DNA of 33,685 nt. Origin: Actinomycetes bacterium. GTDB lineage: Bacteria > Actinomycetota > Acidimicrobiia > Acidimicrobiales > Ilumatobacteraceae. The notes under the pieces were generated by a model, which was given only the letters and a program-made list of their open reading frames with translations, had not been told where the DNA came from and did not search any database. The position numbers and the translations under genes are program-made. Below are positions 1 to 33,685 of this stretch, piece after piece (positions within the stretch are counted from its first letter, which is position 1; every line of letters begins with the position of its first letter). The stretch is taken from positions 1 through 33,685 of the forward strand of contig BJGB01000005.1 in assembly GCA_014190215.1 (NCBI GenBank), given 5' to 3'.

Positions 1-2
1 TG

Positions 3-1446: not shown

Positions 1447-1468
1447 TTGAAACATCTAGGGTGGTTGG

Positions 1469-2119
1469 GTGCCTGAGAACCCCACCAGCGTGACAGCGCT
1501 GAAATCTTTTCGGTTTCGAGTAGGCGCTCTTTTATTTGCTATCGCGGCAGTAGGAACTGCGATTTCACTGATGGTTCAGGCTCATCTTGGAGTTGCCCCT
1601 GCCGATGTTTTTACAACTGGTGGAGCGAAGCAACTTGGTATCGCTGTCGGAACAATGGGTTGGTTGAGTGGTGCCTTCTTCACATTGTTAGCGATTGCCG
1701 TGAAGAGATTTCCAAGTTGGGGAACCTTGATCGGCGGTGTTTTGGTGGGTCAAGTGGTCAATATTGTTCTGCCGCTTGTCGCCGAACCACAGCAATTGGT
1801 GTGGCGCATTCCGATGATGGTGGGCGGTATGGCACTTTTATACTTTGGGATCACCGTGGGTGTGGCCACCACATTAGGAACTGGTCCCATGGAATTACTG
1901 ATGCTCGGGTTGCACGACAAAGGTTTGAGCATGCAAGTCGCGCGCTGGGGAATTGAAGTCGTGGTTGTTACTGGTGGCATTTTGCTGGGTGGGGAAATCG
2001 GGGCTGGGACTATTCTCTTTGTGCTCCTGACTGGACCCGTGTTGGCTCGCACTCTTCCACCTATGGTGCGCTTTATGGGGACAGAAGTGATAAGTCCGCC
2101 AGCAGCTTTAGATGCCTAA
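1469..2119 (+). CDS. YczE/YitT-like multi-pass membrane protein
   Basis: A 216-residue, strongly hydrophobic protein starting at GTG, with about five or six transmembrane segments. The pattern AHLGVAPADVF near residues 38-48 and GTTLGTGPMELL-like spacing near residues 130-140 (here ATTLGTGPMELLML) are typical of the YczE family. The molecular role of that family is poorly defined; some members are linked to secondary-metabolite export or phosphopantetheinyl-dependent synthesis in Bacillus. It begins 22 bp after the DUF1295 gene, so it may be cotranscribed, and its stop overlaps the stop of the convergent CoA-transferase by 3 bp. No soluble domain or signal peptide is visible. Confidence 0.75.
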   Translation: MPENPTSVTALKSFRFRVGALLFAIAAVGTAISLMVQAHLGVAPADVFTTGGAKQLGIAVGTMGWLSGAFFTLLAIAVKRFPSWGTLIGGVLVGQVVNIVLPLVAEPQQLVWRIPMMVGGMALLYFGITVGVATTLGTGPMELLMLGLHDKGLSMQVARWGIEVVVVTGGILLGGEIGAGTILFVLLTGPVLARTLPPMVRFMGTEVISPPAALDA

Positions 2120-3366
2120 GAAGTTTTAGGAATCCGGCTCGAGATCACGCCGTCGTTTTCAAGAGACAATATTTCATTATCGCTCAACGACAAAATATCG
2201 CGCAATACTTGGCGATTGTCCTCACCGCGATACCGCGGCTCGCCATGAGTCCCGACGGCCCCATGAGTGAAATGCCAAGGTGCATTAGGAACTCGTATTT
2301 CTCCACCAATGCGGTCAGGCACTGTCGTAATCGCTCCGCGCACTTCGGCCCATGCGTTCTCGGCAAGTTCGCGCGCGGTGCGCATCACCCCTACGGCTAA
2401 ACCGAACTCATCACATCGATCTTCAAAATCTTGAGCGGTGGCGAGAGAAGATGCCCAGGCACGCATTTCATGAAGCAGAGCCTCAAAGTTAGACATCCGA
2501 GTTTGCACATCAACAAAGCGCGGGTCATTGAGTAAATGTGGCTTATCCATCACCGCCACGATGATCTCAAACGTCCCGCGCTCGGCGGGATGGGCGCTGA
2601 TGACTACATGAGATCCATCGGCCACCTGCATGATTGGATAATCGCCAGGTTGAAACGAGCGAATCCAGTTCGGGTCAATAGGCCCGTCGTATAACTCATC
2701 ATGCATATGTTCGTTGACATAGAGCATGGTTCCCGCCATAGAAACATCGATACGTTCGCCCACACCAGTTCGTTCACGCTGATACAACGCAGCCAAAATC
2801 GCAGTCGTTGTTTCGAGAGCGGTATATGTGTCTGCGTGTGACCATGGGTCGTTGGCGTAATTGCCACCTCGCGTGTCACCTTGTGCGCGAGTGAGTCCAC
2901 TTTCGGCACCGATCACACTTGCGTAGGCGCGCCGATGCACCCATGGACCATCGGCTCCGTAGCCGCTGATTGAGGCATACACGAGACGTGGGTTGGTTGA
3001 CGACAACGTTTCATATCCAAGACCCAGTCGATCCATCACACCGGGGCGATAGTTCTCCAAAACGACATCGCTGGCGTCAGCAAGACTACGAAAAATTTCT
3101 GCACCGCGCTCTGTTGATAAATCAATGCTGATGCATTTCTTTCCCGCATTTTGCTGAATGAAATATGTTGATAGTGATCCAACACGGGGACTAGTGAAAC
3201 GTGTCAGGTCACCTTCGGGAGGTTCAACCTTGATGACTTCGGCGCCATAATCACACAGCATCCGTCCACAGTGCGGACCAGCAAGAACGCGTGTCAGGTC
3301 AAGGACTCGGATGCCAAATAAAGGAGAAGCGGATTGAGTCACCTGCATATCTTGCCCGATTTGCAT
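2116..3366 (-). CDS. Family III CoA-transferase (CaiB/BaiF type)
   Basis: A 416-residue protein of the formyl-CoA/carnitine CoA-transferase family, which moves CoA between carboxylic acids through an aspartyl-CoA thioester. The N-terminal VLDLTRVLAGPHCGRMLCDYG and ENYRPGVMDRLGLGY blocks are diagnostic. The expected catalytic aspartate is D179 in SHADTYTALE. Length fits the family (about 380-420). ATG at 3364-3366 and a second ATG six codons later are both possible; neither has a strong ribosome-binding site. It is divergent from an SDR dehydrogenase 43 bp away, suggesting a shared promoter region and a role in organic acid or fatty-acyl catabolism. The acyl substrate cannot be assigned. Confidence 0.88.
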   Translation of the reverse strand: MQIGQDMQVTQSASPLFGIRVLDLTRVLAGPHCGRMLCDYGAEVIKVEPPEGDLTRFTSPRVGSLSTYFIQQNAGKKCISIDLSTERGAEIFRSLADASDVVLENYRPGVMDRLGLGYETLSSTNPRLVYASISGYGADGPWVHRRAYASVIGAESGLTRAQGDTRGGNYANDPWSHADTYTALETTTAILAALYQRERTGVGERIDVSMAGTMLYVNEHMHDELYDGPIDPNWIRSFQPGDYPIMQVADGSHVVISAHPAERGTFEIIVAVMDKPHLLNDPRFVDVQTRMSNFEALLHEMRAWASSLATAQDFEDRCDEFGLAVGVMRTARELAENAWAEVRGAITTVPDRIGGEIRVPNAPWHFTHGAVGTHGEPRYRGEDNRQVLRDILSLSDNEILSLENDGVISSRIPKTS

Positions 3367-3409
3367 TGCTTTCGTTTACTCGGTCGCACAGACTTTGTGC
3401 GAGTATCAC

Positions 3410-4267
3410 ATGATGTCTTCTCAACATGATCCCCACCCTCTCATCGGCCAGGTTGCATTAATTACAGGAGGGGGATCGGGAATCGGTCTCGGTTGCGCCC
3501 GTGAACTTGTTCAAGATGCGGCGACAGTGATTTTGGCTGCCCGCAATGTTGAACGCCTTGAGGCTGCGGCCGAAGAACTGCGGTCTATTGCCGAAGGTGG
3601 CGCTCAAGTTTTGACTGTGGCATGTGATGTCACAAGCGAAGAAAGTGTGGCGAATGCGTGTGCAGTGGCGAATGCTGCTGGCAAGTTGACCATGGTTGTG
3701 GCCAACGCTGGTTACGGTGGCGGTGGCCCGATCCACTTGACCTCCTTGGAAGATTGGAATGGAATTCTCGGGACCAACCTCACGGGTGCGTTCCTCACCA
3801 TCAAACATTCGGTGAGTTTTTTGGCAGCCAATGGCGGAGGGTCGATCGTCGCCATGTCATCAATTGCTGGACCTGTGACTCACCGTTTCATGACTCCGTA
3901 CGATGTCTCCAAGGCTGGACTGGAAATGTTGGTTCGCCAGACTGCGGACGAACTTGGCTGTCGTAACATTCGTGCCAATGCGGTGCGACCAGGTCTGGTG
4001 CCAACTGATGCCACGCAAGGGATTATGACACTTGATTCAATTTTGCAGGATTACCTAGATCAGATGCCATTAGGTCGCGTCGGCAGTACTCAAGACATCG
4101 GCAAGTTGGTGCGCTTCTTATTGGGCGCCGAAAGTTCGTGGATCACGGGAACCTGTATTAGTGCTGACGGCGGACATCATCTGCGTCGTGGTCCGGACAT
4201 TGAACCTGCGATGGAGATGGTGCTCGGTGATGCGCGCTATCCAGCAGGGCCGATTTCAGGCAGCTGA
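3410..4267 (+). CDS. Short-chain dehydrogenase/reductase (SDR)
   Basis: A classical SDR of 285 residues when started at ATG 3410; an upstream in-frame TTG at 3395 is less likely. It has the Rossmann dinucleotide motif TGGGSGIG (residues 19-26), the structural VANAG motif, SS at 150-151 as the catalytic serine position, and YDVSK with Tyr164 and Lys168. These residues predict NAD(P)-dependent oxidation of an alcohol or reduction of a ketone. It is divergent from a family III CoA-transferase, so a 3-hydroxyacyl or related substrate is plausible but unproven. Its last 12 bp overlap the end of the convergent M20 gene. Confidence 0.9.
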   Translation: MMSSQHDPHPLIGQVALITGGGSGIGLGCARELVQDAATVILAARNVERLEAAAEELRSIAEGGAQVLTVACDVTSEESVANACAVANAAGKLTMVVANAGYGGGGPIHLTSLEDWNGILGTNLTGAFLTIKHSVSFLAANGGGSIVAMSSIAGPVTHRFMTPYDVSKAGLEMLVRQTADELGCRNIRANAVRPGLVPTDATQGIMTLDSILQDYLDQMPLGRVGSTQDIGKLVRFLLGAESSWITGTCISADGGHHLRRGPDIEPAMEMVLGDARYPAGPISGS

Positions 4268-21157: not shown

Positions 21158-21808
21158 ATGCTTTTTTCCAAAAGGAACAATGAGATGGTCAGCCCACAAG
21201 ATGCCTTGCCAGGTCGTACCGATCAGACTATGCCAGTACCTGACAAGCATTTTGTTCTTGATGCACCACTACGCGGGCCGTGGCCAACAGGTTGTGAAAC
21301 AGCCGTCTTTGGTATGGGCTGTTTCTGGGGTGCCGAGCGCATCTTTTGGCAGTTGCCTGGTGTCTTTTCAACTGCTGTTGGATATGCGGGTGGGTACACA
21401 CCGAACTGCACCTATGAAGAGAACTGTTCAGGCTTGACAGGTCATGCTGAAGTTTTTTTCGTGATTTACGATCCCACTGTGATCAGTTACGAATCTTTGC
21501 TCAAAGTATTTTGGGAAAATCACAATCCGACTCAAGGTATGCGACAAGGCAATGACATGGGCTCGCAGTATCGCAGTGCGATTTACACCACGTCGCAGTC
21601 CCAGATGGATGCAGCAAAGGCTTCATGCGCTTTGTTTCAAACAAAACTCAATGAGGCTGGGTATGGGACGATCACAACAGAAATAGCCGCGATGGGCGAG
21701 TGGTATTACGGCGAGCCCTATCATCAGCAATATCTCGCAAAAAATCCTAATGGATACTGTGGAATTGGCGGGATGGGTGTCTCCTGCCCGATTGGCACTG
21801 GGGCTTAA
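21158..21808 (+). CDS. msrA: Peptide-methionine (S)-S-oxide reductase
   Basis: A 216-residue MsrA with the catalytic C55 in [10 protein letters not shown], then [23 protein letters not shown], and resolving cysteines in the tail [13 protein letters not shown]. It repairs methionine-S-sulfoxide in proteins using thioredoxin. ATG 21158 is preferred over ATG 21185 because the extended N-terminus beginning MLF and containing DALPGR matches the Streptomyces-type MsrA. Monocistronic, divergent from the GNAT gene. Confidence 0.95.
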
Positions 21809-21913
21809 CGAGGCTAAGCAGCGACTTCGTTCTGAGTTGTCGGGTGTTGTTCAGTAGTAGGCACGGTTTATTGAACCTGTACAATTTCGGACAAGTTGCT
21901 AAATATCAGAGAA

Positions 21914-21935
21914 GCGATGAAGTGGCGATGAAGTG
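21914..21935. repeat. Two 11-bp tandem direct repeats upstream of livK
   Basis: GCGATGAAGTG occurs twice, head to tail, with no mismatch. It lies 66 bp before the binding-protein start and immediately in front of, or overlapping, the -35 region for the candidate -10 at 21946. This is a good layout for a regulator-binding site, though chance slippage cannot be excluded. Confidence 0.5.
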
Positions 21936-21945
21936 AATGTCTAGA

Positions 21946-21951
21946 TAAAAT
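21946..21951 (+). promoter_or_regulatory. Candidate -10 element of the liv transporter operon
   Basis: TAAAAT, within GATAAAATAAGG, is the best -10-like hexamer in the 190-bp gap between msrA and the binding-protein gene. The matching -35 position (about 21923-21928) is weak and falls inside the tandem repeat, which would fit activator-dependent transcription. The rest of the gap shows no gene. Confidence 0.35.
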
Positions 21952-22000
21952 AAGGCTCACTCGGTTTGAAGTCATCGGACCACATTTTTTGGGGGAAAAT

Positions 22001-23290
22001 ATGAAAGATCAGAATCACGTTCAATTGCGTCGTTTGGGAGGACTTGCTGTCCTGGGCGTTGTCATGGTGTTGGGCGTTGCCTGTGGGGGTAGTGACAGCG
22101 CGAGTACAGAAACTAATGCGCCAGCAACAACTGAAGGCAGCGTTACATCTGATCCAGTAGAAAATGCCAGCAACCGCGATGGGCAAACCATCAAAGTCGG
22201 AGTTGTGAACAATGACTCTTTGCTTCCAGCATTTCGTATCGGTGCGGAGGTAGCAATTGCCGCGATCAATGCCGGGGGCGGAATTAACGGAGCGCAAATC
22301 GAAGTTGTGTCATGCGCTGCGGATGCTTCACCGGAGGGCTCAATTAACTGCGCCAATCAGATGATTGAAGAAAACGTCGCGATCGCGTATACCGCGCTTG
22401 ATCTCGGGTCCGATGCTGCCATCCCTATTTATGATGAAGCGGGAATTCCGTATATCACCACAAATGGTTGGGGGACAGTGCAGGAAAGCAATGCAAACTC
22501 GTTCATTCTTCACGCCGCGTCGAGCGCATCATTTCTTGGACCGTTGAAAACCTTTAAGGATCTCGGCTTGACCAAGGTCGGATACGTGACTGACGTGAAT
22601 TTCGCAGGTACGCCTTACGAGGCAAAACTGAAGAACTACGCAGAGATTTTGGGACTCGAAGTGACTCCCATCTATCTTGATCCTGCCAGTCCTGACTGGA
22701 CAAGCGCGGTGGCCAACTTTAAGTCTCAAGGCATTGAGGCCATTACGGGATTCTTGGGTGAAATCCAATGTATCGGTCTCGTGAGTGCCACCACTGCGGT
22801 CGGCTTTGAAGGAGCAGTTTTCGCCAGTTCGTGCAACCTGTATTTAGATGTTGTACCCGACCTGGCTGTGGGGACCTATAACCAAGCCGACATTTGGACG
22901 ACGTTGGCCTATGACGAAGCTCCAGCCGAGGTACAGGCTCGCCTTGATGAATACAGTGCGAATATGACTGCGGGCGGGCACGAGGCTTTGATCTCAGGAT
23001 TTGCTCACGTTTCTTATGGCGGCTGGATGGAACTGCAAGAAATACTTTCAGCGATCCCCAACGATCAAGAGGTCAACGGTGAGTCTGTGAAAGCCACAAT
23101 CGTGAGCCAAGTATTCCCCGGTTACTTCGGCCCCGATTTGCATTGCGGCGAAGCCCTTTGGGCCGACTCGCCTTCTGCTTGTCACGCTTCGATAGCGGTC
23201 TTCCAAATTGAAAAAGCGGCCGACGGTCGTCTAATTCGCAAACTGTACAGCGACTTCGCAGATAACTCTGCTCTTGTCAATGGCGAATAA
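22001..23290 (+). CDS. ABC transporter substrate-binding lipoprotein (LivK-like, type 1 periplasmic-binding fold)
   Basis: A 429-residue protein. The N-terminus has basic residues, a hydrophobic run and a lipobox LGVAC with C28, followed by an S/T/E-rich linker, so it is an anchored lipoprotein. IKVGVVNNDSLLPAFRIGAEVA and AINAGGGINGAQIEVV are typical of branched-chain amino acid/amide/urea binding proteins. ATG 22001 is chosen over the in-frame TTG 21989 because GGGGG lies just in front. It should capture the ligand for the transporter encoded downstream. It has several cysteines in the mature part (pairs near CGGE, SACH). Ligand could be an amino acid, amide or aromatic acid; not decidable. 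Confidence 0.9.
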   Translation: MKDQNHVQLRRLGGLAVLGVVMVLGVACGGSDSASTETNAPATTEGSVTSDPVENASNRDGQTIKVGVVNNDSLLPAFRIGAEVAIAAINAGGGINGAQIEVVSCAADASPEGSINCANQMIEENVAIAYTALDLGSDAAIPIYDEAGIPYITTNGWGTVQESNANSFILHAASSASFLGPLKTFKDLGLTKVGYVTDVNFAGTPYEAKLKNYAEILGLEVTPIYLDPASPDWTSAVANFKSQGIEAITGFLGEIQCIGLVSATTAVGFEGAVFASSCNLYLDVVPDLAVGTYNQADIWTTLAYDEAPAEVQARLDEYSANMTAGGHEALISGFAHVSYGGWMELQEILSAIPNDQEVNGESVKATIVSQVFPGYFGPDLHCGEALWADSPSACHASIAVFQIEKAADGRLIRKLYSDFADNSALVNGE

Positions 23291-23309
23291 TTGATCTTTC
23301 AATAAGCCG

Positions 23310-23348
23310 GTGTGGGGTGTCTTGAATAATTCTCGAGACACCCCACAC
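23310..23348 (+). terminator. Strong hairpin between livK and the LivHMG fusion
   Basis: GTGTGGGGTGTCT (23310-23322) and AGACACCCCACAC (23336-23348) are perfect 13-bp complements; three further pairs, one a G-T wobble, extend the stem to 16 with a 7-nt loop. Only a short TTTT follows, about 10 bases later, so this is likely a partial terminator or 3'-end stabiliser giving more binding protein than permease. Confidence 0.75.
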
Positions 23349-23398
23349 GACTCATCGGTTTTAATAAAAAAATACTGATGATTAGTTCGGGGTACTAG

Positions 23399-26200
23399 AT
23401 GACACAAATTTTTTTGTTTGCCTTGATAGGTCTAGGTGCCGGTTCGGTTTATGCAGCCTTGGGCGCAGGGGTCGTGGTTGGTTTTCGTGGCACTGGCATC
23501 ATCAATTTTTCTGCTGGCGCCCTCGCAGTTTGGAGCGCCTATGTTTTTGACGAATTGCAAAAAACCGGGGATTTGATTCTTCCGATAGTGGTGGTGCCAC
23601 ATTCAATTCATCTCACTGATAATCCCTCATTCGTTTTGTGTTTATCAATGGCTCTGTTATCTTCGCTGGTTTTGACTTTGGCGGTTCACTTCCTAGTTTT
23701 TAGACCATTACATAGCGCTCCTGTCTTGGCACGAGTAGTTTCTTCTGTGGGAATTTTGTTGGTTATTCAAGCACTAATTTTGATGCACTTTGGTGGTGAT
23801 CCGCGCGCCATGAAGCCGATTTTGCCAAATGAGACTGTGACAATTTCAAACATTACTTTTCCCCGTGATCGACTGTGGTTGGCGTTGATCGTTGCAGTGG
23901 TCGGAATTACTCTGTGGGCCTACTTGCGTTTCACACGCGTCGGACTCGCAACGCGCGGCGCAGCCGAAAGTGAGTCAACAATTTCTCTGGCTGGATACTC
24001 ACCTCAGGTTTTGGCTGGGTTGACCTGGTCAATCTCGGGCTTGTTTACCAGTCTTGTCGTGATTTTGGCCGGACCGTTGTCGAGTCTCAGTGCGGCCACT
24101 TACATATTTGCAATTATTCCTGCATTGGCCGCGGCTTTGATCGGCCGCCTCAAATCGGTTTCGATCACCCTGATCGCAGGTTTAGGTCTCGGCTCGTTTC
24201 AATCGGTTGTTCAATACTTGACAACCAAGGATTGGTGGCCAAGTTGGGCTCGCATCGGACTGACTGATGCGGTCCCTTTCTTGGTCATTGTCGTGACTTT
24301 GATTTTGTTTGGTCAATCATTGCCTAACCGAGGCTCCTTGCGTGTCGATCAACTTCCGCGCGTCACGCAGCCAAAGACGCAGATTCGAACGATGCTTCTC
24401 TTCGGGGTCTGCGGAATGATTTTGATGGCTCTGCTCGGTGGTAGTTACCGCTTTGGTTTGATGACGAGTCTGATCGTGTCGATGATCATGTTGTCGTTAG
24501 TGGTGTTGATCGGTTTAGTTGGTCAAATATCTTTGGCTCAAGCAGCGATTGCGGGGACTGCGGGGTTTGCATTGTCAAAGTTCAGTTCAGTTTCAGGACT
24601 CAACTTCCCACTCGGTTTGCTTCTGTCAGTGCTGGTTTCAATCATGGTCGGCGTCGTTGTTGGTATTCCGGCCCTTCGGATTCGTGGAACGCAACTGGCA
24701 GTAGTGACGTTGGCGAGTGGTTTGGCGTTGGAGAAGTTCGTTTTTCGCAACGGCAGTTTTGTTTCTTCAAATGGAAGTACCATCTCAAAGCCAACTATTT
24801 TCGGTCTTGACCTTGGTGTCCGCGAAGGTCGCAACATTGCTCGTCTGAGTTTTGGAGTTTTAGTTGTTGTCTTCGTAACTCTGGCCTGCATCTTGGTGAC
24901 CAATTTGATTCGCAGCGGTACCGGGCGACGCATGCTCGCAGTGCGGTCGAATGAAAGAGCGGCAGCAGCGGTGGGCATTAGTGTTTCGGCCACCAAGTTA
25001 TTGGCCTTTGCGGTGGCGTCTGGTTTGGCTGGAATGGGTGGGTGCTTCATTGGATATAGCCGCGGTCAACTGTCAGCTGAGAGTTTTTCGGTATTTACCA
25101 GCCTGACCTTTTTAGCATTCGCCTATCTCGGTGGAATTACATCGGTCGGCGGGGCATTAGTCGCTGGCTTGTCGGCTCCACTTGGTCTGATGTTTGTCGT
25201 CATGGATCGCAACATCAACTTGGGCCAGAGTTATGCGTTGTTGGCTGGTGTGGGCTTGGTGACGACGGCGATATTCAATCCGCAAGGAGTGGCTGGTAAA
25301 ACTGCGGAGGATTTTGCTAAGTCGCGACAACGCAAGTTGGCTAAATCAGTCAAGGTGCAAAAGGATCAGGAAACGCCCCAAAACTTGATCCCTAAATTAC
25401 CCGTGGAGTATTCGCCTCAGCCTCGGCCTGACTTCGAAAACGCAGATGCTGTTCTTGAGATATCAGGATTAAGCGTTAGGTACGGGGGACTGGTGGCCTT
25501 GAATGACGCCAACCTGTCGGTTCGACAGGGCGAAATCGTCGGCTTGATAGGTCCGAATGGTGCAGGTAAAACAACATTTATTGATGCCGTGACTGGGTTT
25601 ACTCCAGCACAAGGTGAGGTCGTTTTCAAACATCAGTCATTGCGAGGATTAACACCACACATAATCGCACGACGTGGATTGCGGCGAACCTGGCAATCGG
25701 TTGAACTCTTCAGCGATATTTCTATTACCGATAATCTCCTTGTCGCTATCGAGGGTTCGACTGTGACTGGAACTTTGCGTGATCTCTTTTTCCCAGTGCA
25801 GAACAAACGTGAGCGCCATGTCAGTCAAGCCTTGGAAGCAGTGGGCCTTGAGGTCAGCACGAAGAAGGAAACTTCCGAACTTTCACTCGGCCAGCAAAAA
25901 TTGCTTGGTGTTGCGCGAGCGTTAGTCGCTGAGCCGTCTCTGTTGATGTTGGATGAACCCGCAGCGGGATTGAGTTCATCCGAAACCGAGGCCCTCGGCC
26001 GACAAATCATTAATATTTCCCGAACTGGCATATCAATTCTCTTGGTTGATCACGACATGGACTTGGTTCTCCAGGTTTGCGACCGTATTTTTGTTCTTGA
26101 CTTTGGTTGCGTTATCGCCTCAGGAACCCCTGACGAAATTCGCTCTAACCCCGCCGTGATTGAGGCTTATCTTGGCACTCCAAACGAGGTGGGATCATGA
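23399..26200 (+). CDS. Fused LivH-LivM-LivG: two permease domains and an ATPase in one polypeptide
   Basis: A 933-residue protein. Residues about 1-305 are a LivH-type permease (ALIGLGAGSVYAALGAG start, ARVVSSVGILLVIQ). Residues about 320-640 are a LivM-type permease (VVLIGLVGQISLAQAAIAG and GIPALRIRGTQLAVVTLASG). After a charged linker (about 640-680), a LivG ATPase follows with Walker A GPNGAGKTT at 718-726, the signature LSLGQQ and Walker B LLMLDEP. It forms the membrane and half of the ATPase part of a branched-chain amino acid/amide importer, with LivF next. LivM-LivG fusions are known in Actinobacteria; the triple fusion is less usual. CGGGG precedes ATG 23399. Confidence 0.92.
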   Translation: MTQIFLFALIGLGAGSVYAALGAGVVVGFRGTGIINFSAGALAVWSAYVFDELQKTGDLILPIVVVPHSIHLTDNPSFVLCLSMALLSSLVLTLAVHFLVFRPLHSAPVLARVVSSVGILLVIQALILMHFGGDPRAMKPILPNETVTISNITFPRDRLWLALIVAVVGITLWAYLRFTRVGLATRGAAESESTISLAGYSPQVLAGLTWSISGLFTSLVVILAGPLSSLSAATYIFAIIPALAAALIGRLKSVSITLIAGLGLGSFQSVVQYLTTKDWWPSWARIGLTDAVPFLVIVVTLILFGQSLPNRGSLRVDQLPRVTQPKTQIRTMLLFGVCGMILMALLGGSYRFGLMTSLIVSMIMLSLVVLIGLVGQISLAQAAIAGTAGFALSKFSSVSGLNFPLGLLLSVLVSIMVGVVVGIPALRIRGTQLAVVTLASGLALEKFVFRNGSFVSSNGSTISKPTIFGLDLGVREGRNIARLSFGVLVVVFVTLACILVTNLIRSGTGRRMLAVRSNERAAAAVGISVSATKLLAFAVASGLAGMGGCFIGYSRGQLSAESFSVFTSLTFLAFAYLGGITSVGGALVAGLSAPLGLMFVVMDRNINLGQSYALLAGVGLVTTAIFNPQGVAGKTAEDFAKSRQRKLAKSVKVQKDQETPQNLIPKLPVEYSPQPRPDFENADAVLEISGLSVRYGGLVALNDANLSVRQGEIVGLIGPNGAGKTTFIDAVTGFTPAQGEVVFKHQSLRGLTPHIIARRGLRRTWQSVELFSDISITDNLLVAIEGSTVTGTLRDLFFPVQNKRERHVSQALEAVGLEVSTKKETSELSLGQQKLLGVARALVAEPSLLMLDEPAAGLSSSETEALGRQIINISRTGISILLVDHDMDLVLQVCDRIFVLDFGCVIASGTPDEIRSNPAVIEAYLGTPNEVGS

Positions 26201-26913
26201 CCCTTTTGTCGGTTGAATCGTTGACTGCGGGATACGGCGGTATTTCCGTGGTACGCGACGCAAATATCTATGTTGACAGCGGTGAGATAGTGGCCCTACT
26301 TGGTGCCAACGGTGCCGGGAAGACAACTTTGTTGCATACCATCGCAGGTTTGATTCCTGAGATCAGCGGCGATATCTCTGTGTCGGGCAAAAAAGTCAAT
26401 GGTTGGCCAACCCACCGAATAATCCAACAAGGTTTATCTCTGCTGCCTGAGAACCGTGGAATCTTTTTTCAACTAACAGTGGCAGAGAATTTGCGTTTGT
26501 ATCAGCGCAAGAGTGGTTCGGTATCAGTTCTGGACATCTTGGAGTATTTGCCGGCGCTGGGGGCGTTACTTGATCGAAAAGCTGGCTTGTTGTCGGGTGG
26601 AGAACAGCAAATGCTTTCACTCGGATGTCGATTTATTGCCGATCCGAAATTGATGATGATTGATGAAATGAGTTTGGGTCTTGCCCCGATCATTTTCCAG
26701 CGGATGCTGCCGGTGCTTTCCCGTTTTGTGGTGGACCGTGGCGTTGGAGTGTTGCTCGTGGAGCAGCATGTCGACATGGCCCTTAACTTTGCAAGCCGCG
26801 GGTATGTATTAAACCACGGAGAAATTACGTTCTCGGGCTCCACGCGAGAACTGCAGCACCAACGTCAATTTTTGGAAGCAAGTTATATGGGCTCAACAAA
26901 ACAGGCAGAATGA
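26197..26913 (+). CDS. LivF-like ABC transporter ATP-binding protein
   Basis: A 238-residue ATPase: Walker A GANGAGKTT (about 33-41), the LPENRGIFFQLTVAENL Q-loop region, signature LSGGEQQML, Walker B LMMIDEMSLGLAP, and the switch histidine in VEQHVD. Length is normal for LivF. Its ATG overlaps the fusion-gene stop as ATGA, so it is made in step with LivHMG as the second ATPase. It is the last intact gene before the insertion-sequence region, 56 bp from the first IS end. It is clearly different in sequence from the truncated LivF in the repeated unit. Confidence 0.93.
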   Translation: MTLLSVESLTAGYGGISVVRDANIYVDSGEIVALLGANGAGKTTLLHTIAGLIPEISGDISVSGKKVNGWPTHRIIQQGLSLLPENRGIFFQLTVAENLRLYQRKSGSVSVLDILEYLPALGALLDRKAGLLSGGEQQMLSLGCRFIADPKLMMIDEMSLGLAPIIFQRMLPVLSRFVVDRGVGVLLVEQHVDMALNFASRGYVLNHGEITFSGSTRELQHQRQFLEASYMGSTKQAE

Positions 26914-26931
26914 AACGCCTTCGGCGAACAG

Positions 26932-26947
26932 TTCTTTGGTCAAAGAA
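26932..26947. promoter_or_regulatory. Palindromic sequence between livF and the IS element
   Basis: TTCTTTG-GT-CAAAGAA is a perfect 7-bp inverted repeat with a 2-nt centre, 18 bp after the livF stop and 22 bp before the IS left end. The loop is too small for a good hairpin and no T-run follows, so an operator-like site or a remnant is more likely than a terminator. Confidence 0.25.
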
Positions 26948-27044
26948 ATTCATGATTCGAAATCTGCAGTGTCCTGACCCCCTGAAATAGGTCCATCTCC
27001 TATGAGATAAGTAATCCCGTAAGAATGGGGTTGGGAGGATGGAT

Positions 27045-27323
27045 ATGAAACGGACCAGACATACACCTGAGCAGATTGTTCGCAAGCTGCGTGAGGCCGA
27101 CCGGTTGTTGGCGGAGAGTATTCCGCTTGCTGAAGTGATGCGACATTTAGAGATTTCGCATCAGACGTATCAGCGGTGGCGTAGCCAGTATGGGGCGATG
27201 CGACCTGATGATGTGGCACGACTTAAAACGTTGGAACAAGAAAACGCTCGGTTGAAACGTCTTCTTGCTGAGAAGGAACTTGATAACGACATGTTGAGGA
27301 TGGTCGCCGTATCAAATTTTTAG
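27045..27323 (+). CDS. IS3-family OrfA (HTH and leucine-zipper protein), copy 1
   Basis: A 92-residue protein from ATG 27045, chosen because GGGAGG lies six bases upstream; the ATG at 27039 is too close to it. KRTRHTPEQIVRKLREAD and LEISHQTYQRWRSQYG form the helix-turn-helix that binds the IS ends, and LKTLEQENARLKRLLAEKEL is a leucine-zipper-like coiled coil. It ends in SNF-stop at a slippery site, where a -1 shift would join it to OrfB. Confidence 0.93.
   Translation: MKRTRHTPEQIVRKLREADRLLAESIPLAEVMRHLEISHQTYQRWRSQYGAMRPDDVARLKTLEQENARLKRLLAEKELDNDMLRMVAVSNF
27314..27323 (+). other. Programmed -1 frameshift site, IS copy 1
   Basis: Codons TCA AAT TTT TAG contain A_AAT_TTT, a canonical X_XXY_YYZ slippery heptamer (27314-27320), directly followed by the OrfA stop. 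A -1 slip leads into the OrfB frame without meeting a stop, making the OrfAB transposase. Inferred from sequence and IS3-family practice. Confidence 0.75.
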
Positions 27324-27325
27324 GG

Positions 27326-28189
27326 GTGAAAATGGTGACCCCGAACCAGAAACGGGTCGCGGTGTTGGCTCTTGTTGATGAGTTCGGGGTGTCGCAACGT
27401 CGAGCGTGTCTGGTGGTTGGCCAGTATCGCAGCACGCAACGCCATTGTTTGATTCGCAGCCCTCAAGAAGCGGGTTTGCGTGAACGGATCCGGGCTTTGG
27501 CAGTGAAATATCCTCGTTATGGCTATCGGCGTGTTCATGTGATGTTGATCCGTGACGGGTTCGCGGTGAATCGTCAGCGGGTGCAACGTTTATGGCGCCT
27601 CGAGGGTCTGCATGTGCAACGCCCGAAGCGTCGCAAACCCAAGATTGCTCGAGTGCCGGTTGTTGTTCGGGGCCAATATCCAAATCATGTGTGGGCGATC
27701 GATTTCCAGTTCGATGAAACCGCTGACGGACGACCAGTCAAGATTCTCAATGTGACTGACGAGTTCACTCGTGAAGCGTTAGCCACGAACGCAGCACGAC
27801 GTATCACTGCTGCAGGAACGATGGCTGTCCTTGATCAGATACGCGAGCATCGCGGCGCACCACAGTTTCTGCGCATGGACAACGGACCAGAGTTCATTGC
27901 TGACACTTTGCGTGACTGGTGCAAAGAACAAAACATTCAAGCCAACTATTGTGACCCGGGTTCACCGCTGAATGAACGACAGCAGAACGGTCGTATCGAA
28001 TCATTCAACTCGAGACTCAGAGACGAACTATTGACTCGTGAGGTGTTTGATTCGATGTGGGAAATCCGTTTCATGCTTGAAGAACACCGCAACAACTACA
28101 ACCATTACCGCCCGCACAGTGCGCTTTCCTATCTGACCCCAGTCGAGTACGCCACTAAATGGCGGACCGAAAACAGTGTGTTAGTCTGA
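27326..28189 (+). CDS. IS3-family OrfB integrase-domain transposase, copy 1
   Basis: 287 residues with an HTH_21-type N-terminal part (YPRYGYRRVHVMLIRDGFAV) and an rve (DDE) catalytic domain: D126 in VWAIDFQ, D185 in LRMDNGPEF, E225 in NGRIESFNSR, then YNHYRPHSALSYLTPVEY. The D185-E225 gap holds 39 residues rather than the usual 35, because NERQ appears inserted before QNGRIESF. It is probably translated mainly as the OrfAB fusion; GTG 27326 is only a nominal start. Whether the element is active is unknown. Confidence 0.92.
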   Translation: MKMVTPNQKRVAVLALVDEFGVSQRRACLVVGQYRSTQRHCLIRSPQEAGLRERIRALAVKYPRYGYRRVHVMLIRDGFAVNRQRVQRLWRLEGLHVQRPKRRKPKIARVPVVVRGQYPNHVWAIDFQFDETADGRPVKILNVTDEFTREALATNAARRITAAGTMAVLDQIREHRGAPQFLRMDNGPEFIADTLRDWCKEQNIQANYCDPGSPLNERQQNGRIESFNSRLRDELLTREVFDSMWEIRFMLEEHRNNYNHYRPHSALSYLTPVEYATKWRTENSVLV

Positions 28190-28235
28190 TAAGAGGTGGA
28201 CCGACAAACGGGGTCCAGGACAGGGTAGCAAGTAG

Positions 28236-28676
28236 TTATATATGTGGCTTCGTTAGCCATTCCCGTAAAGCGACATCAAGTTCATCCAACGAGCGCACGA
28301 GTTTGTTGATGCTGCATTGCATCATCAAGTTGACGACTTCATTGCTGTTGGGGAATCGGGCGCGCCAGTCTGTGAATAATCCAATGATGAACTTGTTGTG
28401 GGCATACGCATAGCCCATCTCCCAGGCAGTGCCGTCGTCGGTCATAATGCCATTGAGGTTGGCGACAACTACCTGGCAACGATCAATGCCACCTTTATCA
28501 TTGAGAAATATCTCACCGACATTTTCGGCGGTCTTGGGTGGGTTATCGCGGTGTGGCAAAAAGGTGTCGAACCCAGCATCCTGGACCAACTGATCAATCT
28601 TTTCAATAAACCAGCGTTCACCTTCATCAAATAATGGGCCCGCCACATAGGCATAAGGTCGATCTGTAGCAGTCAT
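28236..28676 (-). CDS. Nucleoside 2-deoxyribosyltransferase-like protein, copy 1
   Basis: A 146-residue protein from ATG 28676, preferred over ATG 28688 because it overlaps the CoA-transferase stop as ATGA with GGAG seven bases upstream. YVAGPLFDEGERWF is the base-binding N-terminal block, and MTDDGTAWEMGYAYA holds the predicted catalytic E86 in the usual D-G/S-T-x-x-E-x-G-x-A pattern. Such enzymes swap or hydrolyse the base of deoxynucleosides. The fold also occurs in nucleotide hydrolases of the DNPH1/RCL type, so hydrolase activity is possible. The stop is 13 bp from the IS right end, so the gene is intact. Confidence 0.85.
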   Translation of the reverse strand: MTATDRPYAYVAGPLFDEGERWFIEKIDQLVQDAGFDTFLPHRDNPPKTAENVGEIFLNDKGGIDRCQVVVANLNGIMTDDGTAWEMGYAYAHNKFIIGLFTDWRARFPNSNEVVNLMMQCSINKLVRSLDELDVALREWLTKPHI

Positions 28677-29809
28677 GTTGTGCTCCATCCATTTTTTCTG
28701 ATCTCTTCACCATCAGCATCTTGAGGACGACCCTCATGACGTAATTCGCCGGGCGTCTTGGACAATCTGGCAATCAGATTTTGCATCGGCGTCTCACCGA
28801 CCAGGGTGACAGCCTCGCGGAATATGAAATGTGGATCAGTAGCAATATCGGCCATATTCATTACTGAACCCACGGCTGCTTCAGCCGCCTCAAAAACTTG
28901 CACGACTTCTGCGCGAGTTCGCTGTGCGCACCACTCGCGCATCAATGTTTCGAGTTCATCACGATGCGCGGCGCGTCCGTCAAATGACTTGAACCGTTGA
29001 TCGTCACCGACACCCAAGAGAGACATCACACGTTGTGCTACTGAGTCAGAGGAAGTCGAAATTCCTACCCACAACCCATCCGCACATAGATAAGTACCGC
29101 GCGGAACCGTGTACGGCAAGCCTGAACCGAGACGAGGCTGCAGTTCTCCGGTGAGAGCAAATAATGATGCGACAGGACCCATGATATGGAACATGCTTTC
29201 CAGCAAACTGATATCCACGACTTGACCGACACCTGAGTACAAAGCCACCATCGTGGCGAATGCACCGACGATTCCTGTCAGTTCGTCGGTGAGCGCGATG
29301 GCTGGAAGGAGTGGCTGTCCGTCAGCCTCGCCATTGACGGCCGCAAAGCCAGACATTGATTCGGCAATAGAAGCGAAACCTGGACGTTGTGCATACGGAC
29401 CGGTTTGCCCAAATCCGCTGACGCGAGTCAGGATCAAAGTTGGGTTGATGGCGTGCAGAACCTCTGGTCCGAGACCGAGGCGTTCGAGTGCACCAGGGCG
29501 AAAGTTTTCCACGACTACATGGGCATCTTTGACCAACTCAAGAAACAGTTCTTTATCTTCTAGATTTTTCAGATCCAGAGTGATCGTGCGCTTATTGCGG
29601 TTAGCCAGTTTCCACCACAAGCCAACACCATCACGCGGATCTTTCCAGGCCATATTGCGCAAACTGTCACCAGTGTCAGGCCGTTCAACTTTGATGACCT
29701 CGGCGCCGTAATCAGCCAGATAACGCGCGCAGTTCGGCCCAGCGAGAACGGTCGAGATATCTAAAACCCGCATTCCATGTAGTGCAGTGGAGGGTGCCGA
29801 ATGACTCAC
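28673..29809 (-). CDS. Family III CoA-transferase (CaiB/BaiF type), copy 1
   Basis: A 378-residue protein starting at GTG 29809. VLDISTVLAGPNCARYLADYG, ENFRPGALERLGLG and VSGFGQTGPYA are family blocks; the predicted catalytic aspartate is D175 in ALTDELTG. It is slightly shorter than the relative at 2116-3366 and clearly a different paralogue, with a different active-site neighbourhood (ALTDELTG against SHADTYTA). It is upstream of, and coupled to, the deoxyribosyltransferase-like gene, an unusual pairing. The CoA donor and acceptor are unknown; the nearby livF remnant hints at uptake and activation of a carboxylic acid, by inference. Confidence 0.9.
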   Translation of the reverse strand: MSHSAPSTALHGMRVLDISTVLAGPNCARYLADYGAEVIKVERPDTGDSLRNMAWKDPRDGVGLWWKLANRNKRTITLDLKNLEDKELFLELVKDAHVVVENFRPGALERLGLGPEVLHAINPTLILTRVSGFGQTGPYAQRPGFASIAESMSGFAAVNGEADGQPLLPAIALTDELTGIVGAFATMVALYSGVGQVVDISLLESMFHIMGPVASLFALTGELQPRLGSGLPYTVPRGTYLCADGLWVGISTSSDSVAQRVMSLLGVGDDQRFKSFDGRAAHRDELETLMREWCAQRTRAEVVQVFEAAEAAVGSVMNMADIATDPHFIFREAVTLVGETPMQNLIARLSKTPGELRHEGRPQDADGEEIRKNGWSTT

Positions 29810-29884
29810 GATCTCTAGCCTGCCAAAGGTTTGGGCATTTTCACCGTCTGTGACGAATTTGCTGGAGGACTGCTGGGGACGGAA

Positions 29885-30327
29885 TTACTTGTGGGTTCCG
29901 AGATAGCGCTCAAAGACATCGCTGCGTTGCAATTCAGCCGAGGTGCCAGCGAAGACGATCTCTCCACGGGTCATGACATATGCCGAAGTTGCAAGAGCTA
30001 GGGCGCGGGCTACAAATTGGTCGACGATCAGCAACGCTGCACCCGCCGCGGCGACCCCGGCGAGGAAGGAGAAGATCTCGTCAACCACAATCGGCGCCAG
30101 ACCAAGAGAGCCCTCATCGACAAGGATCACTCGTGGGTTTTGGGTATAGGCACGCGCCATGGAAAGCATTTGCTGTTGACCACCTGACATCGTTCCCGCT
30201 CGTTGCATGAGGCGTTCACCAAGAATCGGAAAGGCAGCAATTCCTTTTTCAATAGCTATCGACTGTTCGCCCGGCTTTGCTTGTAATTCAAGATTCTCCT
30301 TGACGGTCATTGAAGGAAATATGCCCC
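29885..30327 (-). pseudogene. livF-like ATPase gene truncated by the IS boundary, copy 1
   Basis: The frame encodes GIFPSMTVKENLELQ onward, with signature TMSGGQQQML, Walker B RVILVDEGSLGLAP and the C-terminal LivF tail, about 146 residues. A whole LivF has about 235, so roughly 90 N-terminal residues with Walker A are missing. Coding similarity stops exactly where IS copy 2 begins at 30328. The missing half is nowhere else in the window. It cannot bind ATP normally. It differs from the intact livF at 26197-26913, so a second Liv system once existed upstream. Confidence 0.9.
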
Positions 30328-30402
30328 TGTCCTGACCCCCTGAAATAGGTCCATCTCCTATGAGATAAGTAATCCCGTAAGAATGGGGTTGGGAGGATGG
30401 AT

Positions 30403-30681
30403 ATGAAACGGACCAGACATACACCTGAGCAGATTGTTCGCAAGCTGCGTGAGGCCGACCGGTTGTTGGCGGAGAGTATTCCGCTTGCTGAAGTGATGCG
30501 ACATTTAGAGATTTCGCATCAGACGTATCAGCGGTGGCGTAGCCAGTATGGGGCGATGCGACCTGATGATGTGGCACGACTTAAAACGTTGGAACAAGAA
30601 AACGCTCGGTTGAAACGTCTTCTTGCTGAGAAGGAACTTGATAACGACATGTTGAGGATGGTCGCCGTATCAAATTTTTAG
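30403..30681 (+). CDS. IS3-family OrfA, copy 2
   Basis: Same 92-residue HTH/leucine-zipper protein as in copy 1, with the same GGGAGG ribosome-binding site and the same ending in the slippery sequence at 30672-30678. Confidence 0.93.
   Translation: MKRTRHTPEQIVRKLREADRLLAESIPLAEVMRHLEISHQTYQRWRSQYGAMRPDDVARLKTLEQENARLKRLLAEKELDNDMLRMVAVSNF
30672..30681 (+). other. Programmed -1 frameshift site, IS copy 2
   Basis: The A_AAT_TTT heptamer followed by TAG, as in copy 1, links the OrfA frame to the OrfB frame. Confidence 0.75.
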
Positions 30682-30683
30682 GG

Positions 30684-31547
30684 GTGAAAATGGTGACCCC
30701 GAACCAGAAACGGGTCGCGGTGTTGGCTCTTGTTGATGAGTTCGGGGTGTCGCAACGTCGAGCGTGTCTGGTGGTTGGCCAGTATCGCAGCACGCAACGC
30801 CATTGTTTGATTCGCAGCCCTCAAGAAGCGGGTTTGCGTGAACGGATCCGGGCTTTGGCAGTGAAATATCCTCGTTATGGCTATCGGCGTGTTCATGTGA
30901 TGTTGATCCGTGACGGGTTCGCGGTGAATCGTCAGCGGGTGCAACGTTTATGGCGCCTCGAGGGTCTGCATGTGCAACGCCCGAAGCGTCGCAAACCCAA
31001 GATTGCTCGAGTGCCGGTTGTTGTTCGGGGCCAATATCCAAATCATGTGTGGGCGATCGATTTCCAGTTCGATGAAACCGCTGACGGACGACCAGTCAAG
31101 ATTCTCAATGTGACTGACGAGTTCACTCGTGAAGCGTTAGCCACGAACGCAGCACGACGTATCACTGCTGCAGGAACGATGGCTGTCCTTGATCAGATAC
31201 GCGAGCATCGCGGCGCACCACAGTTTCTGCGCATGGACAACGGACCAGAGTTCATTGCTGACACTTTGCGTGACTGGTGCAAAGAACAAAACATTCAAGC
31301 CAACTATTGTGACCCGGGTTCACCGCTGAATGAACGACAGCAGAACGGTCGTATCGAATCATTCAACTCGAGACTCAGAGACGAACTATTGACTCGTGAG
31401 GTGTTTGATTCGATGTGGGAAATCCGTTTCATGCTTGAAGAACACCGCAACAACTACAACCATTACCGCCCGCACAGTGCGCTTTCCTATCTGACCCCAG
31501 TCGAGTACGCCACTAAATGGCGGACCGAAAACAGTGTGTTAGTCTGA
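30684..31547 (+). CDS. IS3-family OrfB transposase, copy 2
   Basis: Identical 287-residue product to copy 1, including D126, D185, E225 and the four-residue-longer D-E spacing. Confidence 0.92.
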   Translation: MKMVTPNQKRVAVLALVDEFGVSQRRACLVVGQYRSTQRHCLIRSPQEAGLRERIRALAVKYPRYGYRRVHVMLIRDGFAVNRQRVQRLWRLEGLHVQRPKRRKPKIARVPVVVRGQYPNHVWAIDFQFDETADGRPVKILNVTDEFTREALATNAARRITAAGTMAVLDQIREHRGAPQFLRMDNGPEFIADTLRDWCKEQNIQANYCDPGSPLNERQQNGRIESFNSRLRDELLTREVFDSMWEIRFMLEEHRNNYNHYRPHSALSYLTPVEYATKWRTENSVLV

Positions 31548-31593
31548 TAAGAGGTGGACCGACAAACGGGGTCCAGGACAGGGTAGCAAGTAG

Positions 31594-32034
31594 TTATATA
31601 TGTGGCTTCGTTAGCCATTCCCGTAAAGCGACATCAAGTTCATCCAACGAGCGCACGAGTTTGTTGATGCTGCATTGCATCATCAAGTTGACGACTTCAT
31701 TGCTGTTGGGGAATCGGGCGCGCCAGTCTGTGAATAATCCAATGATGAACTTGTTGTGGGCATACGCATAGCCCATCTCCCAGGCAGTGCCGTCGTCGGT
31801 CATAATGCCATTGAGGTTGGCGACAACTACCTGGCAACGATCAATGCCACCTTTATCATTGAGAAATATCTCACCGACATTTTCGGCGGTCTTGGGTGGG
31901 TTATCGCGGTGTGGCAAAAAGGTGTCGAACCCAGCATCCTGGACCAACTGATCAATCTTTTCAATAAACCAGCGTTCACCTTCATCAAATAATGGGCCCG
32001 CCACATAGGCATAAGGTCGATCTGTAGCAGTCAT
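31594..32034 (-). CDS. Nucleoside 2-deoxyribosyltransferase-like protein, copy 2
   Basis: Identical to the copy at 28236-28676, with the same ATGA coupling to the CoA-transferase and the same 13-bp distance to the IS end. Confidence 0.85.
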   Translation of the reverse strand: MTATDRPYAYVAGPLFDEGERWFIEKIDQLVQDAGFDTFLPHRDNPPKTAENVGEIFLNDKGGIDRCQVVVANLNGIMTDDGTAWEMGYAYAHNKFIIGLFTDWRARFPNSNEVVNLMMQCSINKLVRSLDELDVALREWLTKPHI

Positions 32035-33167
32035 GTTGTGCTCCATCCATTTTTTCTGATCTCTTCACCATCAGCATCTTGAGGACGACCCTCATGACGT
32101 AATTCGCCGGGCGTCTTGGACAATCTGGCAATCAGATTTTGCATCGGCGTCTCACCGACCAGGGTGACAGCCTCGCGGAATATGAAATGTGGATCAGTAG
32201 CAATATCGGCCATATTCATTACTGAACCCACGGCTGCTTCAGCCGCCTCAAAAACTTGCACGACTTCTGCGCGAGTTCGCTGTGCGCACCACTCGCGCAT
32301 CAATGTTTCGAGTTCATCACGATGCGCGGCGCGTCCGTCAAATGACTTGAACCGTTGATCGTCACCGACACCCAAGAGAGACATCACACGTTGTGCTACT
32401 GAGTCAGAGGAAGTCGAAATTCCTACCCACAACCCATCCGCACATAGATAAGTACCGCGCGGAACCGTGTACGGCAAGCCTGAACCGAGACGAGGCTGCA
32501 GTTCTCCGGTGAGAGCAAATAATGATGCGACAGGACCCATGATATGGAACATGCTTTCCAGCAAACTGATATCCACGACTTGACCGACACCTGAGTACAA
32601 AGCCACCATCGTGGCGAATGCACCGACGATTCCTGTCAGTTCGTCGGTGAGCGCGATGGCTGGAAGGAGTGGCTGTCCGTCAGCCTCGCCATTGACGGCC
32701 GCAAAGCCAGACATTGATTCGGCAATAGAAGCGAAACCTGGACGTTGTGCATACGGACCGGTTTGCCCAAATCCGCTGACGCGAGTCAGGATCAAAGTTG
32801 GGTTGATGGCGTGCAGAACCTCTGGTCCGAGACCGAGGCGTTCGAGTGCACCAGGGCGAAAGTTTTCCACGACTACATGGGCATCTTTGACCAACTCAAG
32901 AAACAGTTCTTTATCTTCTAGATTTTTCAGATCCAGAGTGATCGTGCGCTTATTGCGGTTAGCCAGTTTCCACCACAAGCCAACACCATCACGCGGATCT
33001 TTCCAGGCCATATTGCGCAAACTGTCACCAGTGTCAGGCCGTTCAACTTTGATGACCTCGGCGCCGTAATCAGCCAGATAACGCGCGCAGTTCGGCCCAG
33101 CGAGAACGGTCGAGATATCTAAAACCCGCATTCCATGTAGTGCAGTGGAGGGTGCCGAATGACTCAC
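32031..33167 (-). CDS. Family III CoA-transferase, copy 2
   Basis: Identical to the copy at 28673-29809, GTG start, predicted catalytic D175. If the duplication is real, dosage of this enzyme is doubled. Confidence 0.9.
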   Translation of the reverse strand: MSHSAPSTALHGMRVLDISTVLAGPNCARYLADYGAEVIKVERPDTGDSLRNMAWKDPRDGVGLWWKLANRNKRTITLDLKNLEDKELFLELVKDAHVVVENFRPGALERLGLGPEVLHAINPTLILTRVSGFGQTGPYAQRPGFASIAESMSGFAAVNGEADGQPLLPAIALTDELTGIVGAFATMVALYSGVGQVVDISLLESMFHIMGPVASLFALTGELQPRLGSGLPYTVPRGTYLCADGLWVGISTSSDSVAQRVMSLLGVGDDQRFKSFDGRAAHRDELETLMREWCAQRTRAEVVQVFEAAEAAVGSVMNMADIATDPHFIFREAVTLVGETPMQNLIARLSKTPGELRHEGRPQDADGEEIRKNGWSTT

Positions 33168-33242
33168 GATCTCTAGCCTGCCAAAGGTTTGGGCATTTTC
33201 ACCGTCTGTGACGAATTTGCTGGAGGACTGCTGGGGACGGAA

Positions 33243-33685
33243 TTACTTGTGGGTTCCGAGATAGCGCTCAAAGACATCGCTGCGTTGCAATTCAGCCGAG
33301 GTGCCAGCGAAGACGATCTCTCCACGGGTCATGACATATGCCGAAGTTGCAAGAGCTAGGGCGCGGGCTACAAATTGGTCGACGATCAGCAACGCTGCAC
33401 CCGCCGCGGCGACCCCGGCGAGGAAGGAGAAGATCTCGTCAACCACAATCGGCGCCAGACCAAGAGAGCCCTCATCGACAAGGATCACTCGTGGGTTTTG
33501 GGTATAGGCACGCGCCATGGAAAGCATTTGCTGTTGACCACCTGACATCGTTCCCGCTCGTTGCATGAGGCGTTCACCAAGAATCGGAAAGGCAGCAATT
33601 CCTTTTTCAATAGCTATCGACTGTTCGCCCGGCTTTGCTTGTAATTCAAGATTCTCCTTGACGGTCATTGAAGGAAATATGCCCC
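33243..33685 (-). pseudogene. livF-like ATPase fragment, copy 2, reaching the window edge
   Basis: Same C-terminal LivF piece as copy 1. Here the break coincides with the window end, so the next bases are not seen. A full-length gene could exist here if the window end is a contig break rather than an IS junction. Confidence 0.85.

What the first reader, a model, noticed from the sequence alone, without database searches (positions are those of the whole stretch)
26970..33685. Exact tandem duplication of a 3358-bp IS-plus-cargo unit that fills the window to its last base
The unit IS3 element, deoxyribosyltransferase-like gene, family III CoA-transferase and broken livF occurs twice head to tail, with identical proteins and a constant 3358-bp offset. 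The window ends exactly on the boundary. A real array would be an IS-mediated amplification, or the integrated form of an IS-cargo circle. An assembler walking a loop in the repeat graph gives the same picture.
Basis: partly seen in the sequence, partly recalled or inferred. Interest (0 to 1): 0.6.

Follow-up and report, generated by a model that had tools for sequence, protein, structure and literature searches.

The report
Looped insertion-sequence repeat, copy number unknown
A short-read assembler appears to have printed one looping stretch of a bacterial genome twice: the junction that closes the loop, where a mobile element meets a transporter gene, is probably real, but the number of copies was never measured.

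Summary
In detail: 26970-30327 equals 30328-33685 base for base (3358 bp). The window is only part of a 34677-base contig and stops at a 100-N gap. After the gap the unit's last 127 bp return, then unique sequence that completes an intact livF. Two contig tips diverge from their neighbours at exactly base 127 and no sampled tip shares more, so the graph probably used k=127. Such a graph looks the same for two tandem copies, three copies, or one copy plus a circle: one edge was printed twice, and 'two copies' is not a measurement. The closing junction lies exactly on the IS terminus, so a real tandem array is most likely but unproven. The 'cargo' is native: 14 of 23 same-genus genomes match most of it without the IS, and G019 has uninterrupted livF. 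Amplification between two flanking ISs does not fit, because no IS precedes the right flank. IS-centred duplication without target duplication is already published (PMC11708052). Low interest; reads would settle copy number.

The parts
26970..30327 (+). printed copy 1 of the 3358-bp unit (IS + C segment)
   Evidence: exact identity with 30328-33685
30328..33685 (+). printed copy 2 of the unit; beyond the window the contig continues with 100 N, then 127 bp of unit end, then the right flank
26970..28222 (+). IS3-family element, 1253 bp, ends TGTCCTGACCCC / GGGGTCCAGGACA
   Evidence: same ends in copies from other genomes
27039..27323 (+). orfA, HTH_Tnp_1
27326..28189 (+). orfB, rve integrase core; its frame is open from 27287 and overlaps orfA
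28236..28688 (-). nucleoside 2-deoxyribosyltransferase-like gene
   Evidence: PF05014
28673..29809 (-). CoA-transferase family III gene
   Evidence: PF02515
29885..30327 (-). 3' part of livF, joined at 30327 to the left end of the next IS
30327..30328 (.). loop-closing junction: livF sequence joined to the exact left terminus of the IS
   Evidence: one occurrence in G000, 0 of 23 other same-genus genomes (up to 2 mismatches)
26969..26970 (.). left boundary: 56 bp after the stop of the left-hand livF-like gene, joined to the left terminus of the IS
31594..33685 (-). second print of the three genes; livF continues across the gap into the right flank

Best explanation
A real IS-bounded junction makes a loop in a k=127 short-read assembly graph, and the assembler printed the loop's single edge (IS + C, 3358 bp) twice before jumping a 100-N gap to the right flank. 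Biologically the loop is most likely a chromosomal tandem array L-(IS-C)n-R with n of 2 or more, unmeasured, in at least part of the population. Inferred mechanism: the IS sits between L and C; its left end is joined by transposase into livF, 3.36 kb to the right of that end. A replicative event between sister chromosomes, or a small IS+C circle put back by homologous recombination, yields L-IS-C|IS-C-R, with the first livF truncated and the last one intact. Shown: exact repeat, gap, 127-bp overlap, tip behaviour at base 127, junction at the exact IS terminus, native origin of C. Inferred: that the junction is real DNA, that it is tandem rather than a circle, the assembler, the mechanism and the copy number.
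For: Exact 3358-bp repeat. 100 N followed by exactly 127 bp of unit end, then right flank. In 61 readable contigs sampled of 259 (825 kb) there were two runs of 10 N and this single 100-N run, the only one with an identical sequence on both sides. Of 121 contig tips, 8 recur elsewhere in the sample: two match for exactly 126 bp and differ at base 127, the others for 42, 42, 44, 44, 64 and 69 bp, none for 127 or more, as a k=127 graph allows. Graph construction: L-(IS-C)2-R, x3, and chromosome + circle give the same four edges by length and ends, and the post-gap piece starts at the branch vertex. The IS right end occurs only twice in G000, both times followed by C, so the loop is simple. The junction falls on the IS terminus, confirmed by independent copies. 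PMC6052550 (sections 14 and 16 read): in simulations SPAdes scaffolds showed 2 copies for arrays of 3, 4 and 5 copies (0 with the 250-bp insert for 400- and 500-bp motifs), while simulated 2-copy arrays were resolved already at unitig level.
Against: No reads or coverage were available. A minority edge, chimeric reads or a mixture of strains could create the loop. None of the 23 other same-genus genomes has the junction. The assembler is inferred from k and gap patterns, not documented. One tip (C192) diverges at base 65, which the k=127 reading does not specially predict. In the real data sets of PMC6052550 SPAdes missed several two-copy repeats altogether (Table 4), so its simulations do not transfer simply. 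G000 is a MAG (80.8% complete, 2.38% contaminated).
Confidence: 0.62

Rival explanations
1. The chromosome carries one copy (L-IS-C-R) and an excised IS+C circle coexists; the assembler merged them.
For: The k=127 graph has the same four edges as that of the tandem array. Circles of one IS26 copy plus neighbouring DNA are described in PMC7986276 (passages read).
Against: A 3.4-kb circle without a replication origin should be rare, yet the junction was abundant enough to be assembled (inference). [quoted passage not shown]
Confidence: 0.12
2. Strain mixture: some cells have the IS at L|C, others have a second, ordinary IS insertion in livF; no array exists in any cell.
For: It would give a livF|IS junction at the exact IS terminus without any array, and the sample is a population. 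Its graph can also yield the observed post-gap piece, as a path of two edges (model C).
Against: It needs IS|R and, for strains with the livF insertion only, L|C joins. The IS right end occurs in G000 only before C, and the full-unit search showed no second C beside L. The IS would be an unresolved 1253-bp repeat node, yet the contig crosses it into C twice without a gap. An 80.8% complete bin weakens this argument.
Confidence: 0.14
3. Pure assembly error: the livF|IS junction is a chimera and the genome is simply L-IS-C-R.
For: Printed copies are perfectly identical, one is bordered by a gap, and the assembly is a MAG; G019 and G008 have uninterrupted livF and no relative shows the unit twice in tandem.
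Against: A chance chimera would not be expected to fall exactly on the IS terminus and to leave a clean two-way branch.
Confidence: 0.08
4. Classical composite-type amplification by recombination between two directly repeated IS copies flanking C.
For: IS-gene-IS-gene-IS arrays are a known outcome, for example with IS15 (PMC7986276, passages).
Against: The right flank follows C directly, not an IS. In the composite model (model E) the right edge would begin with IS end, unlike the observed piece.
Confidence: 0.03

Closest known systems
IS481-centred Dup-IS-Dup duplication in Pseudomonas fluorescens SBW25 (PMC11708052; abstract and passages read)
   Same: An IS lies at the junction between two direct copies of neighbouring DNA, without target-site duplication; [quoted passage not shown]
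   Different: There it is a 59,943-bp duplication confirmed by PCR and Sanger sequencing, with a new IS copy between the two segments and none mentioned at the outer ends in the passages I saw. Here it is 3.4 kb, the IS is also at the left edge, the element is IS3-family, and only an assembly supports it.
IS26/IS6-family translocatable units and arrays (PMC7986276, passages)
   Same: Unit of one IS plus adjacent DNA in head-to-tail order.
   Different: The transposase is IS3 family, not IS6. The IS15 array described there ends in an IS; this one ends in C joined to the flank.
Tandem-repeat loops in short-read assembly graphs (PMC6052550; sections 14 and 16 read, passages elsewhere)
   Same: SPAdes scaffolds gave two copies whether the simulated truth was 2, 3, 4 or 5 (0 in some short-insert runs); the loop with one way in and one way out described there is the one modelled here.
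   Different: Motifs were at most 612 bp; the unit here is 3358 bp. The assembler of G000 is inferred.

Membership tests
IS3 family insertion sequence | Transposase matching IS3 models | tested here: met
   orfB NF033516 206.7 bits (cut-off 160); Pfam rve, HTH_21; orfA HTH_Tnp_1
IS3 family insertion sequence | Two overlapping ORFs, orfB in the -1 frame | tested here: met
   orfA 27039-27323; orfB frame open from 27287
IS3 family insertion sequence | Slippery A-rich frameshift site in the overlap (recalled feature) | tested here: inconclusive
   no A run of 4 or more inside the overlap 27287-27323; A4 at 27225, 27241 and 27329 lie outside it
IS3 family insertion sequence | Terminal inverted repeats 5'-TG...CA-3' | tested here: met
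   17 of 25 positions in an ungapped match; ends shared by copies in other genomes
IS3 family insertion sequence | Short target-site duplication (3-5 bp, size recalled) | tested here: not met
   none at the window copy, nor at 3 of 3 other insertions with both ends visible (G071 = L108, L110, L112); filing as IS3 rests on the transposase, the ORF layout and the ends
IS-flanked composite amplification | IS copy at both outer ends of the array | tested here: not met
   right flank follows C directly
IS26-type translocatable unit | IS6-family transposase | tested here: not met
   IS3 models match; no IS6 model among the hits
Dup-IS-Dup without TSD | IS between direct copies, no TSD at the junction | tested here: met
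   livF end CCCC | IS | GGG at C start
Dup-IS-Dup without TSD | Duplication present in real DNA molecules | not testable with these tools
   no reads, coverage or DNA
Assembler loop (copy number not measured) | Overlap of exactly k across the gap and k-sized behaviour at contig tips | tested here: met
   127 bp across the 100-N gap; 2 of 8 recurring tips diverge at base 127, the other 6 earlier, none later

The most novel reading that the evidence does not exclude
An IS3-family element in a wild actinobacterium joins one of its ends to a site in neighbouring native DNA and so makes IS-plus-neighbour units (circles or sister-chromosome duplications) that build a multi-copy array of three or more units, an IS26-like 'translocatable unit' behaviour in a copy-out/paste-in family.
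Probability: 0.18. Interest if true: 0.45.

Novelty: new member of a known kind. Interest (0 to 1): 0.15.

Why it matters
Mostly as a caution: an exact long tandem copy in a short-read MAG can be one graph edge printed twice, and a 100-N gap with a k-sized overlap across it is a cheap flag that copy number was not measured. If the array is real, it adds a small natural example of an IS duplicating neighbouring chromosomal genes without a second flanking IS.

Tried and rejected
Rejected: foreign cargo. C matches in one stretch of 1.4 kb or more in 14 of 23 same-genus relatives, follows the msrA-like gene in 12 of 23, and C to R is uninterrupted in G019 and G008. Against a fixed neighbourhood: in 12 of those 14 the match stops before livF, in G021 it stops inside the 3' end of livF with 385 bp of contig left, and upstream of C three genomes (G004, G008, G017) have something other than msrA.

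Rejected: the window end as a biological boundary. It is the start of an N run.

Considered: the 100 N as a stretch withheld by the operators (C1:1-20000 and its last 400 bases do read all N). Unlikely, because the sequence after it restarts exactly 127 bp inside the unit and then continues as in G019.

Led nowhere: the junction pattern in viral contigs (0 hits) and in the genus (only G000, 1 of 24). Paper searches for assembler behaviour (7 listed, none opened) and for a source study (7 listed, none opened). The genome-contig scan gave 79 loci with relatives of the transposase, but the tool states that records of this genome may be left out. Pairwise tip overlaps of 42 and 44 bp are shorter than k and say nothing about the loop.

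Limits: models C and F do not give the post-gap piece as one edge but can as a path of two, so that test alone does not exclude them. Model D (one IS between two C copies) gives it too, but has no L|IS join, which the contig shows. R was defined as running to the contig end, so only the start of the post-gap piece is a real test.

Full report
What is in the sequence. Positions 26970-30327 and 30328-33685 are identical over 3358 bp, and this is the only exact direct repeat of 30 bp or more in the window. As a control, 61 sources of the same genome (the window, C185, 19 stretches of 17.5-20 kb and 40 further contigs) were scanned for direct repeats of 60 bp or more; only the window holds a long one, and three others hold short-period repeats (offsets 33, 14, 54). 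The unit is an IS element (26970-28222, 1253 bp) followed by a segment C (28223-30327) with three leftward genes: a nucleoside deoxyribosyltransferase-like gene, a CoA-transferase family III gene and the 3' part of livF. The IS ends TGTCCTGACCCC and GGGGTCCAGGACA recur in copies in other genomes, so the boundaries are those of the element. I call the sequence left of it L and the unique sequence right of the array R.

The window is not the contig. In the held genome (G000, 2.2 Mb, 259 contigs, 80.8% complete) the window is the first 33685 bases of contig C5, which is 34677 long. At 33686-33785 there are 100 N. At 33786-33912 the last 127 bp of the unit return, and from 33913 unique sequence follows. 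With the shared 127 bp counted once, C plus R reads through as an intact LivF (240 aa from its likely ATG); R also holds the 3' part of a second ABC-ATPase-like gene that runs off the contig (label read from the sequence, livG by position). So 'fills the window to its last base' reflects a cut at a scaffold gap, and a right flank exists.

Assembler signature. I sampled stretches of 62 of 259 contigs; C1 read as N in what I took. Apart from C1 there were three N runs: 10 N in C10, 10 N in C24 and this 100 N; only this one has an identical sequence on both sides, of exactly 127 bp. Of 121 readable contig tips, 8 recur elsewhere in the sample. Two (C182 end in C2, C39 end in C197) match for exactly 126 bp and differ at base 127, as expected if a contig begins at the first 127-mer unique to a variant. 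The other six match for 42, 42, 44, 44, 64 and 69 bp; none reaches 127. The tip that diverges at base 65 (C192) is not specially predicted. I conclude that the graph probably used k=127, the usual top value of SPAdes (recalled). That SPAdes inserts 100 N plus a k overlap when it jumps a loop is also recalled, from its source code, and comes from no call.

What a k=127 graph can and cannot tell. I built the local graph for seven candidate structures. Two tandem copies, three tandem copies, and one chromosomal copy plus a circle give the same four edges by length and ends: L into IS; the 3358-bp IS-C edge; a 254-bp return edge (C end to IS start); and the exit edge that starts with the unit's last 127 bp. 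The observed post-gap piece starts exactly where that exit edge starts. The two printed copies are then one edge printed twice, and their perfect identity carries no information. In the simulations of PMC6052550 (sections 14 and 16 read) SPAdes scaffolds gave 2 copies for arrays of 3, 4 and 5 (0 with the 250-bp insert for 400- and 500-bp motifs), while two-copy arrays were already resolved at unitig level; in its real data sets SPAdes missed several two-copy repeats in both modes. By the simulations, two copies next to a gap fit n of 3 or more, or excess loop coverage, at least as well as n=2; this is a weak inference because motif sizes, data and software version differ.

Is the loop real? 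The return junction joins livF to the exact first base of the IS. A random chimera would not be expected to land there. The IS right end occurs only twice in G000, both times followed by C. Another IS start, 94% identical over 237 bp, sits at the tip of contig C185; its longest shared word is 69 bp, so it shares no 127-mer with this IS. A strain mixture with a second ordinary IS insertion in livF needs IS|R or L|C joins, which are not seen, though the bin is incomplete. I put a real array first (0.62), then strain mixture (0.14), circle (0.12), pure chimera (0.08) and composite amplification (0.03).

The genes are not cargo. In one search, 14 of 23 same-genus genomes have a single match of 1.4 kb or more to C without the IS; G019 has it in two contig pieces. 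In 12 of 23 (G002, G003, G005, G010, G011, G012, G015, G019, G020, G021, G022, G023) C follows the msrA-like gene (window 21158-21808, label read from the sequence) with no IS and no left liv operon between. In three others (G004, G008, G017) something else lies upstream. The conserved core is the deoxyribosyltransferase-CoA-transferase pair: in 12 of the 14 the match stops before livF, and in G021 it stops inside the 3' end of livF. C continues through livF into R with no IS in G019 (95-96%) and in G008 (68-73%). The exact livF|IS junction occurs in G000 only (1 of 24).

Mechanism, inferred. In the printed order L-IS-C-IS-C-R only the left outer edge has an IS, so unequal crossing-over between two flanking ISs does not fit. 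A replicative joining of the IS left end to livF on a sister chromosome gives this duplication and, as reciprocal product, a deletion; the same joining within one chromosome gives an IS+C circle that can recombine back. Either predicts no target duplication at the duplication junction, as found (CCCC|IS|GGG). But the three other insertions of this IS type with both ends visible also lack one, so this is weak support. A published relative is the IS481-centred duplication of 59,943 bp in P. fluorescens without target duplication (PMC11708052, abstract and passages). Copy-out/paste-in elements normally join their own two ends (PMC7780238, passages), and IS26-type units are reviewed in PMC7986276 (passages).

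Verdict. It is a member of a known kind, of low interest.

Noticed in passing
21810-28222: A rightward liv operon (substrate-binding protein, permease/ATPase fusion, livF-like gene) plus the IS lies between the msrA-like gene and the deoxyribosyltransferase gene, which are adjacent in 12 of 23 same-genus genomes. G007 has the operon at 85% with a metallo-beta-lactamase-fold-like gene after it (label read from the sequence, not tested). The IS thus sits at a gene junction not seen in the relatives.
   Followed up: partly
23399-26200: A single 933-aa ORF carries two matches to the branched-chain amino acid permease domain and an ATP-binding domain (LivH-LivM-LivG like); a 933-aa ORF of the same kind occurs in G007.
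   Followed up: no
L006 (G000:C185) 1-3705: A second IS start, 94% identical over 237 bp, is cut by the contig tip. Beside it are a short ORF that looks like part of a DNA methyltransferase and a 962-aa UvrD-like helicase ORF (labels from reading the sequence, not tested), possibly a broken defence system.
   Followed up: no
1-42: The first 42 bp of contig C5 are the reverse complement of the first 42 bp of contig C8, so the two contigs are probably neighbours.
   Followed up: partly
L067/L108, L110, L112: Relatives of this IS in other actinobacterial genomes show no target-site duplication in 3 of 3 insertions with both ends visible, unusual for the IS3 family as recalled.
   Followed up: partly
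L007 (G021:C235) 1-385: In G021 the match to C stops inside the 3' end of livF (C position 1728) although 385 bp of contig remain, so a different sequence joins livF there.
   Followed up: no
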